Source: Candidatus Thalassospirochaeta sargassi (GTDB lineage Bacteria; Spirochaetota; Spirochaetia; UBA9216). Taken from it: a DNA stretch of 64,000 nucleotides. A program made the translations under genes and the position numbers. The notes beneath the pieces were generated by a model, which saw nothing but the letters and a program-made list of their open reading frames with translations, made no database searches and was not told the DNA's origin. The stretch is from contig JAQQAL010000017.1 of NCBI GenBank assembly GCA_028532855.1, positions 62,001-126,000 of the forward strand, written 5' to 3'. Positions 6,978-53,461 of this stretch are shown here, in pieces. Position 1 is the first letter of the stretch. The number at the start of each line of letters is the position of its first letter.

Positions 6978-7023
6978 GTTAAAACTCCTATAATCCGCCA
7001 AGGATGGCGGTTGATTCCGATTA

Positions 7024-7087
7024 GAGTTTGAAAAGAATCTTTTCAAACTCCTGAATAAGAAAATTACATGGATGCAATTTTCTTATT
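7024..7087. repeat. Paired-hairpin intergenic element, copy 1
   Basis: Two perfect hairpins stand side by side. GAGTTTGAAAAG (7024-7035) pairs with CTTTTCAAACTC (7039-7050). AATAAGAAAATT (7054-7065) pairs with AATTTTCTTATT (7076-7087) around the loop ACATGGATGC. The same arrangement, with a shared AGTTTGA arm and ACATGGATG loop, recurs at 39738-39798, and a related pair is at 58361-58421. It lies upstream of the BI-1 gene. Confidence 0.7.
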
Positions 7088-7161
7088 AAAAATCGCCTCA
7101 AATGCCGTAATAGTCAAGCACTGGGGCCGAATTTTTACAATCTTTACAATTCAACCCGCTC

Positions 7162-48020: not shown

Positions 48021-49304
48021 TCAATTTTGAACTAATTCAAGAATCCAACGAACCCAGCTTAAGATGGTCGAAGCGCGTCGGGAGTAGGTTGAGTCACTAT
48101 TGATTTTATATAACCCAGCCTCTTTCATAATCTCAACGACTTCTTCTCGTGTAGGTTCTTCAGCTTTATGAAAATATAATAATAGAACTTCTGCAAAAAC
48201 AGTATGTTTTAAAATTAATTCCGCAAACATCAATTGTTTTTCTTTAAATTTCAATTCTAGAATATTTTTACCCTCAGTTGTTAAGCGACAACCAATATCA
48301 TCTCGATTTGAATCTTTAATGAGGCCAAGATATCTTCCAGCATTAGTATAATAATCAGTTTGTCTTGGATCAAAATCATAAGTTGTTGTTATTTCATCCT
48401 TGGTTAACGGTTTATCATTAAGTAATTCACAAAGATTAATAATTCGCTCAAACGAATCCGCCTGTGGAAATGGTATCTTGGGCTCACGAATCTGTGTTGT
48501 TGTATGTGAAAGTTCAAGTAACTCATCTATAGTAATTTCCTGCTTTTCAAGCGAGTAAAGTCGTTTCCTTAACAGAGTTATAGAATTTATCTCATTTTCA
48601 TTCTCAAATTTATACTCATATAAATGGAAAATGCCATTAGTATATATCATAAATATCGGGCGAATCGATTTATTAATCTTCCTCTTCCATAATCTATAAG
48701 GATAATATAATTGCCTAATCAAAAAATCAGTAGATATCGAGTTCTTAGCTTCAACCAAACACAATGAATCTAAGCTTTCAAATCCACCATCAATTTCAAT
48801 TTGTGAATTTGAAACATCGATATCAATTTTAGAATCATTTAAAGAACAATCGACTTTAAATGAAAAAGAGTCTGAACTCATCCGCCCGGTCACTGTTGGT
48901 AATAATTCAGCACCTAAAAAATCTTCCAACATACCTGACGCATATGCACAACTGATAGCAGCAGCTTCACTTGTAATGTGATTTGTATTTAAGCTCTGCA
49001 GATATTGTGGTAACACAACAAAATTTATAGGTTCATTCTCATCAAATTCTATATCTTTATAAATTTCCATTGGCGCAATGACATAGTCACCTCTAGTCAC
49101 AGGTAATATTGAAAGTTTGTTCTCTCTGAATATTTCTGGCAAATTCGCTTTATGATCAAATTTGGTCATAAGCCGCGCTTCCCGAAATTCATTTATTTCA
49201 GTGGCACTTATTCTAAAATTACCCTCTGATTTTATAACAGATAGAATATTCTTCTTTAGAAAGAGTTTTTCCCAAGCAAGATCATTCTTAGTCTTCTTTA
49301 AACT
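48021..49304 (-). CDS. Probable type II restriction endonuclease
   Basis: A roughly 427-residue protein encoded next to a DNA adenine methylase. A PD-(D/E)xK nuclease core is visible in QIEIDGGFESLDSLCLVEAKNSISTDFLIRQLYYPYRLW, with Asp, then Glu-x-Lys (VEAK). The N- and C-terminal parts are all-helical. ATG 49304 overlaps the methylase gene by 17 bases; a GTG start 36 bases upstream is possible. The gene is AT-rich relative to the rest of the window, which points to transfer as a restriction-modification unit. It would cut the site methylated by the partner; the site is not readable. Confidence 0.75.
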   Translation of the reverse strand, partial: SLKKTKNDLAWEKLFLKKNILSVIKSEGNFRISATEINEFREARLMTKFDHKANLPEIFRENKLSILPVTRGDYVIAPMEIYKDIEFDENEPINFVVLPQYLQSLNTNHITSEAAAISCAYASGMLEDFLGAELLPTVTGRMSSDSFSFKVDCSLNDSKIDIDVSNSQIEIDGGFESLDSLCLVEAKNSISTDFLIRQLYYPYRLWKRKINKSIRPIFMIYTNGIFHLYEYKFENENEINSITLLRKRLYSLEKQEITIDELLELSHTTTQIREPKIPFPQADSFERIINLCELLNDKPLTKDEITTTYDFDPRQTDYYTNAGRYLGLIKDSNRDDIGCRLTTEGKNILELKFKEKQLMFAELILKHTVFAEVLLLYFHKAEEPTREEVVEIMKEAGLYKINSDSTYSRRASTILSWVRWILELVQN

Positions 49305-50157
49305 CATAATTTCTAACCAAAACTTCTTTAACAGCCCCACGTTTCTCAGCTTTAGAATTTACCGCCCTATTTGCATTAATATGAAAGATTTTATAATTTT
49401 TGTATAAACCATTAATAAAATCAGTAGAAGAATTAGACAATAAGAAATGAACACCTTTCTCATCTAAATGATCACAATGTTTTTTAAGTCTAATCTGTTC
49501 ATCTTTGTCAAACCCACCTTTTGTATAGCCGGTAAAATTCGCACTATTTGATACTGGATCATAAGGAGGATCCAAATACACAAAGGAAGATGGGGTAATT
49601 TCATTCAATACTTCACTATAATCAGTATTTAAAATATTAATATCATTATTAGAAAAATAATTGTGAATTGCCCTAATTGTAATATCATTAACGATGTTTG
49701 GGTTTTTATAGCGTCCAAATGGCGTATTGAATTCGCCGGCACTATTCACTCTGAAAAGCCCGTTATAACAGGTCTTATTCAAAAATACTATGCGTGAAGC
49801 ACGTTCAATATTGCTTAAATTTTTATAAACCTCTTTATCTCGATCTAAACCCCGAATTTCATAAAAATATTCCTCTTCATTTTTATGTTTTTTTAAATCG
49901 TCAATTAGGTCCTCTGGACAGTCTCTTATAACTTTATAAAGATTAACCAGTTCGGAATTTGTGTCATTAATAACAGCTTTATTAGGCTGAAGGTGAAAAA
50001 GAACTGCGCCACCACCAATAAAAGGTTCATAATACGTAGTCTTGCTATTATAAACTTCTTGAGGAAGATGCTTTTCAATATCCTTTAATAACTGTCGCTT
50101 TCCTCCTACCCATTTAACAATAGGAGATACAAGTTTATTTAGTTTCTTTTTTGCCAT
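49288..50157 (-). CDS. DNA adenine methylase (Dam/D12 class)
   Basis: A 289-residue N6-adenine methylase of the alpha group: motif I PIVKWVGGKRQLL with YYEPFIGGGAVLFHL, the catalytic YLDPPYDPVSNSANFTGYTKGGFDKDEQIRL, and a target-recognition loop NKTCYNGLFRVNSAGEFNTPFGRYKNPN. That loop is close to the Dam/DpnII type, so GATC is the first guess for the site. The restriction enzyme gene overlaps its end by 17 bases. It is AT-rich like its partner, unlike its neighbours. Confidence 0.9.
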   Translation of the reverse strand: MAKKKLNKLVSPIVKWVGGKRQLLKDIEKHLPQEVYNSKTTYYEPFIGGGAVLFHLQPNKAVINDTNSELVNLYKVIRDCPEDLIDDLKKHKNEEEYFYEIRGLDRDKEVYKNLSNIERASRIVFLNKTCYNGLFRVNSAGEFNTPFGRYKNPNIVNDITIRAIHNYFSNNDINILNTDYSEVLNEITPSSFVYLDPPYDPVSNSANFTGYTKGGFDKDEQIRLKKHCDHLDEKGVHFLLSNSSTDFINGLYKNYKIFHINANRAVNSKAEKRGAVKEVLVRNYEFKED

Positions 50158-50231: not shown

Positions 50232-50252
50232 AGACCGGAATAATTCCGGTCT
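50232..50252 (-). terminator. Terminator of the HesB-like selenoprotein gene
   Basis: AGACCGGAAT (50232-50241) pairs with ATTCCGGTCT (50243-50252), and nine A at 50224-50232 give a T-run on the minus strand. It lies 23 bases after the selenoprotein stop codon. Confidence 0.85.
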
Positions 50253-50274: not shown

Positions 50275-50559
50275 TCAACAGGTACCGCCTGCTGAGGATT
50301 GAATTGTTAATCCCTTCTGCCAGAAGGTTTCGATATAATCTATAACAGCATTTTCGACAACATGTTTTATACGTTCCTCAAACTGAAACATAAACCCATC
50401 ATGTTCAAGGGCGGTCATATTTTCATCAGACTCATCCAGAGCCATACTCAACTGAGGACCGCCTCAGCCAAACCCCTGAATGAAAACAGTAAAAACCTTT
50501 CCCGGTTTTGAATCTGCAAATTCCTTCAGAGGACCCTTTGCCTTATCAGTAATAGTCAT
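50275..50559 (-). CDS. HesB/IscA-like selenoprotein (in-frame UGA = Sec)
   Basis: The frame from ATG 50559 to TGA 50275-50277 encodes 94 residues with one internal TGA at 50464-50466 (codon 32). The surrounding GFG-Sec-GGPQLSMALDESDENM aligns with the Cys motif of A-type Fe-S carriers. The protein continues normally (HDGFMFQFEERI, VIDYIETFWQKGLTIQSSAGGTC) in the HesB pattern and ends in Cys94. A candidate bSECIS has a GAG/CUC stem with a UAUGG loop about 18-22 bases after the UGA. TTGACT, 17 bases, TAATTT, six bases, ATG predicts a leaderless mRNA. Known HesB-like selenoproteins carry Sec here. Read as two ORFs it would be missed. Confidence 0.85.
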
Positions 50560-50629
50560 TTCCGGAAATTACTATATACTTCTGTAATAGTCAAGAATCT
50601 ATCTCTCCTATTTGACTACATCCTTTTTC

Positions 50630-51859
50630 TCACCCCCCTCTCTGAAATAAAAGCCTGAACCCGTCAGTCAGCTTCATGCTCTTGCCGGTGCGGAGAATTG
50701 CAAGCCTGAAAATTTTACCAGAGCCTACGGCCACCGCAATAATTGAGACAAGCATTATCGCAACACATAATATTATATGCAGCATCCCCGGAGGTGACAC
50801 TATAACTCGAACAAACATTGTCATTGGAGCGGTAAGCGGAAAAAAGGACATGAAAACAGTCACAGGCGCTTCAGGGTTCATAACAAGATAGGAAACCATC
50901 ACCATAGGAAGCACAAGCGGGATAATAAAGGGTATCTGCAGCTGACCGTAACTCTGCTCATCCTGTGCAAGGGCTCCGCAGACAGCATAGAGCCCGGAAT
51001 AAAGGAAAAATGCCAGCAGAAAAAATAGAATCAGGTAGCCGAGCATATCCGCGGAAAGCAGCGACGGCATGCTGATATCGAGGGCGGGGCCTACAACCTT
51101 CATCAACAGCAGTGATACGCCTATCCAGATACCGTACTGTATAATACCGGCAATGCCCATCCCGGCAATCTTGCCGATCATCAGGGTCGCTGGTCTCACC
51201 GAAGACAGCATTACTTCTACAGTCTTGCTCGTCTTCTCGGTTACAACCGAGCGGCCTATCATCTGGCTGTATAAAAGGGTTGTCATATACAGTAGCATAA
51301 TAAAAGCGATTGCCGTATAGATGAAATCATTGAAATTCTGACCTGCCTTGTCAGCGCCGTCGCGATTCAGCTGAACAATATCAAACTCAGGCACAGCAGT
51401 CAGCATCGCAACCTGTTCCGAAGCAATACCGGCTTCCGCCGCTCGCAGATTTGTAAGGATTCCCGCGATAGTGTTTCGAACTGTCTCCGTCATTATTATA
51501 TTGCTCCCTTCTCGTGTATAAAACTGCAGGGTCTGAGCATCTATAGCATTTTCAGGCAACACAAGGACACCTTCTACATTGCCATCAAAACAATCTTCAC
51601 GGGCAGCTTCAAAATCAAGAGCCCGATATATCGTAATATAATCCGGGCTTGATGCAATAAGCATATCTGCAAGCCCAGCCTCTCCGTATACAGCAATACG
51701 CACATCGGTTACTTCATCAATGCCGCGCTGAGCTAAAAGACCGGGAACTACGGCAACTGCTATAATCAGAACAGGCCCCAGAATTGTCAAAACTATGAAA
51801 CTCTTGCGAGCGGCGGTTCGGCGAAAATTATATTTTATCATGACAAGAATTTTATTCAT
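50630..51859 (-). CDS. ABC-2 type exporter permease (NatB-like)
   Basis: A 409-residue membrane protein. One N-terminal helix (SFIVLTILGPVLIIAVAVVPGLLA) is followed by a large extracytoplasmic domain (residues about 40-175) and then five or six helices (MLLYMTTLLYSQMIGRSVVTEKTSKTVEVMLSSV). That is the Na+-exporter NatB/ABC-2 pattern. ATG 51859 has AGGAG nine bases upstream and overlaps the ATPase gene by eight bases. An ATG-like start further upstream is less likely. With the ATPase it forms an exporter of unknown substrate. Confidence 0.88.
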   Translation of the reverse strand: MNKILVMIKYNFRRTAARKSFIVLTILGPVLIIAVAVVPGLLAQRGIDEVTDVRIAVYGEAGLADMLIASSPDYITIYRALDFEAAREDCFDGNVEGVLVLPENAIDAQTLQFYTREGSNIIMTETVRNTIAGILTNLRAAEAGIASEQVAMLTAVPEFDIVQLNRDGADKAGQNFNDFIYTAIAFIMLLYMTTLLYSQMIGRSVVTEKTSKTVEVMLSSVRPATLMIGKIAGMGIAGIIQYGIWIGVSLLLMKVVGPALDISMPSLLSADMLGYLILFFLLAFFLYSGLYAVCGALAQDEQSYGQLQIPFIIPLVLPMVMVSYLVMNPEAPVTVFMSFFPLTAPMTMFVRVIVSPPGMLHIILCVAIMLVSIIAVAVGSGKIFRLAILRTGKSMKLTDGFRLLFQRGG

Positions 51860-52760
51860 TTCGGGATTCTCCTTCTCCTGCAAGATCAATAAAGATTTTA
51901 TGAAGACTAGGCCGCTGAACCTCGAAGCGGCTTATTTTTAGTTTTTCAACAACAGCTTTCAGCAGTTTCTGCTCCACTTCAGGTTCATTAACTAATGAAA
52001 CCTCGCACGATCCGGGCCACTCAATCAGTTCTTCAACAAATGCCAGATCACGAATAAAGGACGCAGTTCCCTCAAAATCAATAACAACTGTATTTCGACC
52101 ATGACGGCTTTTTACCTCTGAGACTGTTCCGTCAGTTTTAGCCTTACCTTCTTTCAGGATACATATCCTGTTACAGATTTTCTCAGCATGATCCATGATA
52201 TGTGTAGAAAAGATGATAGTCTTCCCCCCATCCCTAAGCTCTGCAATTATAGCGCTCATCTGATCGGCACTGACGGGGTCAAGACCTGAAAATGGTTCAT
52301 CAAGAATAATGATGTCCGGATTATGCAGTATTGTTGAGATAAACTGTATCTTTTGACTCATCCCCTTGGACAAATCATCGGTCATGTTTTTTTTCCATTC
52401 AAACAGCCCAAAACGTTTAAGATAGAAATCTATGAGCTTCATCGAATTCCTGGCCGGCATTCCCTTAAGCTCAGCAAGGAAAACCAGCAGTTCGTCTACA
52501 GCAACCTTCTTGTATAATCCACGCTCTTCAGGCATATAGCCTATACGATCTTTATCTGATTCCAGGATCTTTCTACCGTCAAAAAGGATTTCACCGCTGC
52601 TCGGCTGAATTATGTTCATTATCATCCTGATTGTTGTAGATTTTCCTGCCCCGTTAGGCCCCAGAAGACCGTAAATTTCTCCGCGCTCAAGGGAGAATGA
52701 AAGCCCCTTCACAGCTTCGATGCTGCCGTAATTTTTGTGAACGTTGATGATATCTATCAT
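51852..52760 (-). CDS. ABC transporter ATP-binding protein (NatA-like)
   Basis: A 302-residue ATPase: Walker A LLGPNGAGKST, signature DLSKGMSQKIQFI (variant of LSGGQ), Walker B DIIILDEPFSGLDP, and the H-loop FSTHIMDHAEK. The C-terminal 80 residues form the extra domain typical of ABC-2 exporter ATPases. The ribosome site GGGGTGAG precedes the ATG. It overlaps the permease gene by eight bases and both are transcribed toward the selenoprotein gene. Confidence 0.92.
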   Translation of the reverse strand: MIDIINVHKNYGSIEAVKGLSFSLERGEIYGLLGPNGAGKSTTIRMIMNIIQPSSGEILFDGRKILESDKDRIGYMPEERGLYKKVAVDELLVFLAELKGMPARNSMKLIDFYLKRFGLFEWKKNMTDDLSKGMSQKIQFISTILHNPDIIILDEPFSGLDPVSADQMSAIIAELRDGGKTIIFSTHIMDHAEKICNRICILKEGKAKTDGTVSEVKSRHGRNTVVIDFEGTASFIRDLAFVEELIEWPGSCEVSLVNEPEVEQKLLKAVVEKLKISRFEVQRPSLHKIFIDLAGEGESRNE

Positions 52761-52921
52761 TACTCACCCCTTATATAATCTTTTACAACCAGGAAGGATA
52801 GTTATTCAATTATATAACAAAAACCCCGGGAAAGTTTGTCACTTAGTTGCTGAAATAGAAATTCTTGCTTTGTAGTTTAAGGGGTAGTATATTTAATAGA
52901 TAATAATTTTAAGGAGTGACA

Positions 52922-53461
52922 ATGAGTATCAAAAAAGAGATGCAGGATGCAATTAATGATCAGATAAATGCCGAAATGTTCTCAGCCTATCTTTACCTAT
53001 CAATGGCCAGCTGGTTTGAAGATGAAGATCTTCCGGGATTCGGCAACTGGATGAGATGTCAATATATGGAAGAAACGATGCACGCAATGAAGTTCTTCAA
53101 CTTCCTGAATGAACGCGGCGGCAGAGCAGAACTTAAACCTATTGAAGGTCCAGATATAAACTGGAATTCATATCAGGAAGCGTTTGCAGCCGTTGTGGCC
53201 CATGAGGAATATATAAGTGAAAGAATTAACAAACTTGTTTCACTTTCAAGAAAACTTGAGGACTACGCGACTGAAAGCTTTCTAATGTGGTATGTCGATG
53301 AACAGGTTGAAGAAGAAGATGAAGCCAATAAAATTCTTGCGAAGTTAAAAAGACTTAAGGAAGACTCAAACGGACTTCTTCGCTTCGACAGCGAGATGGC
53401 AGGTAGAGCAGTAGCTGCTGCTGCAGTCCCGACAATTCTTGATCAAGCTTTGGTTGATTAA
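52922..53461 (+). CDS. ftnA: Ferritin
   Basis: A 179-residue, four-helix-bundle non-haem ferritin. Ferroxidase ligands are visible: Glu18 in NAEMFSAYLYL, Glu51 and His54 in EETMHAMKFF, and the later AHEEYISERINKL and VDEQVEEEDEANKI glutamates. It stores iron in the cytoplasm as a 24-mer. AAGGAG stands seven bases before ATG 52922. A strong terminator follows. It is a single-gene transcript, without a visible Fur box. Confidence 0.95.
   Translation: MSIKKEMQDAINDQINAEMFSAYLYLSMASWFEDEDLPGFGNWMRCQYMEETMHAMKFFNFLNERGGRAELKPIEGPDINWNSYQEAFAAVVAHEEYISERINKLVSLSRKLEDYATESFLMWYVDEQVEEEDEANKILAKLKRLKEDSNGLLRFDSEMAGRAVAAAAVPTILDQALVD

What the first reader, a model, noticed from the sequence alone, without database searches (positions are those of the whole stretch)
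50275..50559. HesB/IscA-like selenoprotein hidden by an in-frame UGA
A 94-codon frame is interrupted by one TGA (50464-50466) placed exactly where A-type Fe-S carriers have their active Cys: GFG-Sec-GGP. Coding character continues across the TGA, a terminator follows, and a promoter precedes it. HesB-like selenoproteins are a known family, so recoding, not pseudogenisation, is the best reading. A candidate bSECIS (GAG/CUC stem, UAUGG loop 18-22 bases downstream) is visible. Standard gene calling would miss it. It implies that the organism has SelA/B/C/D.
Basis: partly seen in the sequence, partly recalled or inferred. Interest (0 to 1): 0.88.

Follow-up and report, generated by a model that had tools for sequence, protein, structure and literature searches.

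The report
Spirochaete HesB/IscA-like selenoprotein gene
A small bacterial gene that looks broken by a stop codon almost certainly makes an intact iron-sulphur-carrier-like protein by reading that stop as selenocysteine; it is a good catch of a gene that annotation tends to miss, but it belongs to a selenoprotein family known for about twenty years.

Summary
The finding is real and its interpretation holds, with one correction. On the minus strand (50559-50275) a 94-residue frame has one in-frame UGA at codon 32 (50466-50464), in the motif GFG-UGA-GGP. Five close relatives and 29 more sampled genomes of the phylum carry the UGA in the same column. Purifying selection acts on both sides of it. 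The window's own genome has tRNA-Sec, selA and selB side by side, plus selD. In 393 genomes of the phylum, 28 of 30 with the UGA form have selA (overall 90 of 393). One relative without selA has Cys instead, and its hairpin is broken.

The hairpin is GGCUC-UGGAU-GAGUC at 50443-50429, paired in all 36 sequences with compensatory changes in three pairs; it fits the published bSECIS model.

The predicted fold matches IscA and SufA. This is the HesB-like selenoprotein family, sixth most frequent in bacteria in a 2016 survey. The window protein is a divergent short member, below the NCBIfam cut-offs (52.9 against 85 bits; 27.4 against 66.35), so automatic annotation would probably miss it. The cellular role of these proteins is unknown.

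The parts
50275..50559 (-). CDS of the HesB/IscA-like selenoprotein: ATG at 50559, 94 residues with Sec32, stop TGA at 50277-50275
   Evidence: Translation; family hits; homologues with the same UGA; dN/dS
50464..50466 (-). In-frame UGA read as selenocysteine 32 (motif GFG-U-GGP, i.e. UxGP)
   Evidence: TGA in 36 of 36 Sec-type sequences; Cys in the others; aligned with the first conserved Cys of IscA-type proteins
50429..50443 (-). bSECIS core hairpin GGCUC-UGGAU-GAGUC; apical loop 50438-50434 with GG at loop positions 2-3; 25 nt between UGA and loop
   Evidence: 5 pairs formed in 36/36 sequences, compensatory changes at 3 pairs; synonymous sites frozen (Leu codon CTG 36/36)
50410..50463 (-). 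Longer RNA fold around the bSECIS: 7-bp lower stem GGCGGUC (50463-50457) with GACCGCC (50416-50410)
   Evidence: MFE -21.5 kcal/mol, z -3.3 against shuffles; lower stem present only in the three closest species, so not part of the conserved core
50232..50252 (-). Intrinsic-terminator-like hairpin followed by eight T, downstream of the CDS
   Evidence: 9 pairs, 5 of them G-C
50566..50594 (-). Putative promoter: TTGACT (50594-50589), 17-base spacer, TAATTT (50571-50566), overlapping the conserved element TATATAGTAA (50578-50569)
   Evidence: Same arrangement and distance to ATG in two other species of the genus; not found by the consensus scan: weak

Best explanation
A monocistronic-looking gene encodes a 94-residue HesB/IscA-like selenoprotein. 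SelB carries Sec-tRNA(Sec) to the ribosome, binds the hairpin GGCUC-UGGAU-GAGUC whose loop begins after 25 nt from the UGA, and decodes the UGA at codon 32 as selenocysteine. The product has the A-type carrier fold. Sec32 sits at the place of the first conserved Cys of IscA, and a single C-terminal Cys (Cys94) is the only other invariant thiol. Shown here by computation: frame, UGA conservation, hairpin covariation, Sec machinery in the same genome, co-occurrence with selA, and predicted fold. Inferred: that Sec is actually inserted. Least certain: that Sec32 and Cys94 together bind a metal or Fe-S cluster, or act as a selenol-thiol pair in Fe-S or metal handling. The confidence given is for the selenoprotein reading; for the Fe-S or metal role it is about 0.5.
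For: Sec machinery: tRNA-Sec with anticodon TCA (68.6 bits, above cut-off); selA (466 bits) and selB (282 bits, 566 aa) next to it on one strand of contig C14; selD on C5 (354.8 bits). UGA conserved: relatives at 79, 69, 54, 46 and 37% identity all have one TGA, as do 29 more genomes of the phylum and genomes of Atribacterota, Tissierellia and Zixiibacteriota. dN/dS about 0.1-0.27 on both sides of the UGA within the three closest species. bSECIS; loop G in second position and distance to the UGA as in the published model (PMC13188914). Co-occurrence with selA in 28 of 30 genomes against 62 of 363, p about 1e-17 without correction for relatedness; the five close relatives with UGA have selA, while two relatives with Cys lack it. 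Family: NF038090 E 3.6e-14, TIGR00049 E 2.6e-8, TIGR01911 E 3.7e-6. Fold: pLDDT 89.7, best PDB matches E. coli IscA and SufA.
Against: No protein or ribosome evidence for Sec insertion. Scores are under the curated cut-offs of every family model. Two of the 30 phylum genomes with the UGA form have no detected selA, though both are only 81-83% complete. Nothing here tests Fe-S binding, and a disruption mutant of the HesB-like selenoprotein gene in Methanococcus maripaludis was not impaired in nitrogen fixation (PMC11097638).
Confidence: 0.96

Rival explanations
1. Pseudogene: an A-type carrier gene inactivated by a point mutation Cys (TGY) to TGA.
For: A single stop inside a small frame; the same genome holds a Cys-type paralogue (C9:33891-34160).
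Against: The same UGA in 36 sequences from several families and phyla; dN/dS well under 1 after the UGA; covarying hairpin; complete Sec machinery.
Confidence: 0.01
2. UGA is read by another route: near-cognate readthrough or reassignment of UGA (for example to Trp).
For: The frame is open through the UGA under any such code.
Against: UGA ends this gene and many of its relatives, so it is a stop elsewhere. The aligned residue in homologues is Cys, not Trp. UGA forms go with selA, and a selA-less relative has Cys.
Confidence: 0.01
3. It is a regulated truncation: the UGA mainly stops translation, and readthrough serves as a selenium switch.
For: All Sec codons compete with termination (established knowledge); nothing here measures efficiency.
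Against: The 31-residue product would hold only the first helix and strands of the fold. Selection is about as strong after the UGA as before it.
Confidence: 0.02

Closest known systems
HesB-like selenoprotein family (TIGR01911 HesB_rel_seleno; NF038090 IscA_HesB_Se)
   Same: UxGP motif, Sec in place of the first conserved Cys, about 95-105 residues, bSECIS just after the UGA, organism with the Sec trait
   Different: Divergent: scores 27.4 of 66.35 and 52.9 of 85 bits needed. Other Sec-type spirochaete members also score under the cut-offs (about 50 bits to NF038090 for L023 and L051). It belongs to a short subgroup (93-95 aa) found in its genus and two other families of its class
Canonical A-type carriers IscA / SufA / ErpA (PF01521, TIGR00049)
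   Same: Same predicted fold (TM up to about 0.74 to E. coli IscA); Sec32 aligns with their first conserved Cys
   Different: C-terminal Cys-x-Cys reduced to one Cys; GCxGF-type motif replaced by UGGP; below the PF01521 cut-off (17.4 of 26.3 bits)
Cys-type HesB-like paralogues of the same spirochaetes (C9:33891-34160 in this genome; L026-L031)
   Same: Similar length, GxGCGxP motif, a Trp-containing FWGK motif near the C-terminus
   Different: Cys instead of Sec, no MALDE stretch and hence no bSECIS, a well supported separate clade (100/100)

Membership tests
Bacterial selenoprotein (Sec by UGA recoding) | In-frame UGA conserved in homologues, aligned with Cys in non-Sec homologues | tested here: met
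Bacterial selenoprotein (Sec by UGA recoding) | bSECIS hairpin after the UGA: apical loop of 3-9 nt, G in one of the first two loop positions, 16-37 nt from the UGA | tested here: met
   5-nt loop UGGAU, G at position 2, 25 nt between UGA and loop; covariation
Bacterial selenoprotein (Sec by UGA recoding) | selA, selB, selC, selD in the genome | tested here: met
Bacterial selenoprotein (Sec by UGA recoding) | Selenium present in the protein | not testable with these tools
   Needs 75Se labelling or mass spectrometry
HesB-like selenoprotein (TIGR01911 / NF038090) | UxGP motif at the A-type carrier's first Cys | tested here: met
   UGGP at residues 32-35; motif as listed in PMC13188914
HesB-like selenoprotein (TIGR01911 / NF038090) | Score above the curated model cut-off | tested here: not met
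   52.9 against 85 (NF038090), 27.4 against 66.35 (TIGR01911); it lies outside the models' automatic naming range although these are among its best hits, so it is filed as a divergent member of the broader HesB-like selenoprotein family, not as a certified hit of either model
Canonical A-type Fe-S carrier (IscA/SufA/ErpA) | A-type carrier fold | tested here: met
   AlphaFold model pLDDT 89.7; Foldseek probability 1.00 to IscA and SufA
Canonical A-type Fe-S carrier (IscA/SufA/ErpA) | Three cluster-binding Cys: one central and a C-terminal C-x-C | tested here: not met
   Only Sec32 and one C-terminal Cys94
Canonical A-type Fe-S carrier (IscA/SufA/ErpA) | Binds and delivers an Fe-S cluster | not testable with these tools
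   Biochemistry needed

The most novel reading that the evidence does not exclude
This genome has no match to SufB/SufD and none to the A-type family PF01521. The Sec protein and one divergent Cys paralogue are then its only detected A-type-like proteins, and the Sec protein may be its working A-type carrier, with a selenol ligand making part of Fe-S or metal delivery depend on selenium.
Probability: 0.12. Interest if true: 0.55.

Novelty: new member of a known kind. Interest (0 to 1): 0.27.

Why it matters
It is a clean example of a gene that standard calling is likely to miss and that family models would not name, although relatives are common in its phylum: 30 of 393 sampled genomes carry the UGA form. 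HesB-like selenoproteins have been known since the early bacterial selenoproteome surveys, but their function is still unclear. The spirochaete set offers a natural comparison: Sec form with selA, Cys form without selA, and one apparent Sec-to-Cys change with a decayed bSECIS.

Tried and rejected
Viral contigs hold no relative. Formate dehydrogenase as a further selenoprotein: only a distant match under the cut-off, no UGA. F420-hydrogenase delta subunit FlpD/MvhD: absent. Pfam PF01521 and SufBD searches of the genome: no match. Rfam at gathering scores shows nothing at this place. The lower 7-bp stem (50463-50457 with 50416-50410) was considered as part of the bSECIS, but only the three closest species have it.

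Full report
What is there. The frame is on the minus strand. From ATG at 50559 to TGA at 50277-50275 it encodes MTITDKAKGPLKEFADSKPGKVFTVFIQGFG-U-GGPQLSMALDESDENMTALEHDGFMFQFEERIKHVVENAVIDYIETFWQKGLTIQSSAGGTC, with one in-frame TGA at codon 32, 50466-50464. Third-position G+C is 35% before and 37% after the TGA. A terminator-like hairpin with eight T follows at 50252-50232. The gene lies after two same-strand ABC-transporter genes (52760-51852 and 51889-50630) and before a DNA adenine methylase gene (50157-49288) with a second same-strand gene beyond it (49340-48021) (names by inspection of the translations).

The genome decodes Sec. The assembly that holds the window (3.84 Mb, 53 contigs, completeness 100%) has a tRNA-Sec with anticodon TCA (68.6 bits against a cut-off of 47), selA (466 bits), selB (282 bits, 566 aa) and selD (354.8 bits). 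tRNA-Sec, selA and selB lie side by side on one strand of contig C14.

The UGA is conserved. In 198 related genomes the five best matches outside the own genome, at 78 to 38% identity, each have exactly one TGA, at the same codon. A profile search of 393 genomes of the phylum gives 30 genomes with the UGA form, the own one included. A scan of named genomes adds UGA forms in Atribacterota, Tissierellia and Zixiibacteriota. All 36 Sec-type sequences collected have TGA at this column, followed by x-G-P in every case. Non-UGA homologues have Cys there. Named close relatives are metagenome-assembled Spirochaetales genomes.

Selection. Between the three closest species dN is 0.07-0.19 and dS 0.76-0.92 before the UGA, and 0.13-0.22 and 0.65-0.93 after it. 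The part after the UGA is therefore translated.

The bSECIS. The sequences align without gaps from the UGA on. RNAalifold chooses one hairpin, columns 24-28 with 34-38, GGCUC-UGGAU-GAGUC in the window (50443-50429). It is formed in 36 of 36 sequences, with changes on both sides at three of five pairs. With two further outer pairs the covariation score is 0.323 against 0.217 in shuffles (none of 500 as high), and sliding the partner destroys it. The Leu codon in the 5' arm and loop is CTG in 36 of 36, and the Ala/Thr/Val codon before it ends in T in 36 of 36, as expected if RNA structure constrains synonymous sites. The published bSECIS model asks for a small apical loop with a G in one of its first two positions, 16-37 nt after the UGA (PMC13188914); here the loop is UGGAU, with 25 nt between it and the UGA. 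The 58 bases after the UGA also fold with a 7-bp lower stem (z -3.3), found only in the three closest species.

Co-occurrence. selA is found in 90 of 393 genomes of the phylum. Of the 30 with the UGA form 28 have it; the two without are 81-83% complete. Fisher's p is about 1e-17, descriptive only because the genomes are related. The five close relatives with the UGA have selA, and two relatives with only a Cys form do not. G226, in a genus whose other sampled members with this gene carry the UGA form and selA, lacks selA and has TGT at the codon; its hairpin reads GGCUA-UAGAU-GAGUC, with the innermost pair and the loop GG lost, and its C-terminus looks degraded. This resembles the Sec-to-Cys conversions with remnant SECIS described for this family (PMC1794560).

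What the protein is. The best family hits are NF038090 (IscA_HesB_Se, E 3.6e-14), TIGR00049 (E 2.6e-8) and TIGR01911 (HesB_rel_seleno, E 3.7e-6), all below their curated cut-offs; Pfam PF01521 is also below cut-off. All 31 Sec-type proteins scanned match the first two selenoprotein models and TIGR00049 at E 0.001 or better. A profile of these 31 finds IscA-type proteins in the PDB, with the Sec column on their first conserved Cys. The AlphaFold model (pLDDT 89.7) has E. coli IscA and SufA as nearest solved folds. Sec32 and one C-terminal Cys94 are invariant in the 31-sequence alignment. Canonical A-type carriers have a C-terminal Cys-x-Cys (established knowledge), which this protein lacks. The tree puts the window protein with two species of its genus (100/99) and, less firmly (85/81), with a third species and a second family of its class; the Cys-type paralogues of the same organisms form a separate clade (100/100).

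How it probably works. SelB-dependent insertion of Sec at codon 32 is strongly supported by computation and not shown experimentally. The biochemical role is inference: the fold and the position of Sec32 suggest a metal or Fe-S ligand, or a selenol-thiol pair with Cys94. The genome has no match to SufB/SufD or to PF01521 at E 0.001, so the Sec protein and one Cys paralogue (C9:33891-34160) are its only detected A-type-like proteins. The function of HesB-like selenoproteins is described as unclear in the literature, and a Methanococcus maripaludis mutant was not impaired in nitrogen fixation (PMC11097638).

Novelty. HesB-like selenoproteins were among 25 families counted in bacteria in 2006 (PMC1794560) and ranked sixth by number of organisms in 2016 (86 organisms, PMC5029168). 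In the 2006 survey the spirochaete listed as selenoprotein-rich, Treponema denticola, was not credited with one. The window gene is thus a divergent new member of a known family, in a phylum where the family proves to be frequent.

Noticed in passing
L068 (G226:C39:24620-24856): Apparent Sec-to-Cys conversion in a selA-less member of a genus whose other sampled members with this gene have the UGA form: TGT at the codon, bSECIS loop GG and innermost pair lost, C-terminus degraded.
   Followed up: partly
window 50569-50578 (-); L021, L022, L030 upstream of the gene: The 10-mer TATATAGTAA stands directly upstream of hesB-like genes in three species of the genus, and also upstream of the Cys-type homologue of a related genus (G006); expected 0.11 times by chance in the whole window. 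Possible promoter or operator. In the three species no Shine-Dalgarno sequence is seen before the ATG, so leaderless translation is possible.
   Followed up: partly
window 50630-53461: Two ABC-transporter genes precede the hesB-like gene on the same strand in four species of the genus; a ferritin-like gene (52916-53461) lies next to them here and in G003 (L035).
   Followed up: partly
window 48021-50157 (-): DNA adenine methylase gene followed by a gene of 439 aa, perhaps a DpnII/MboI-type restriction-modification pair; the methylase gene also follows the hesB-like gene in G003 and G004, and the pair does in G003.
   Followed up: no
window 6994-7091 (+): TD-2 RNA (RF03162), a small RNA family, above the gathering score.
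   Followed up: no
whole genome G000: No match to SufB/SufD (PF01458) or canonical A-type carriers (PF01521) in a genome rated 100% complete; Fe-S assembly must use another system, which was not searched for.
   Followed up: partly
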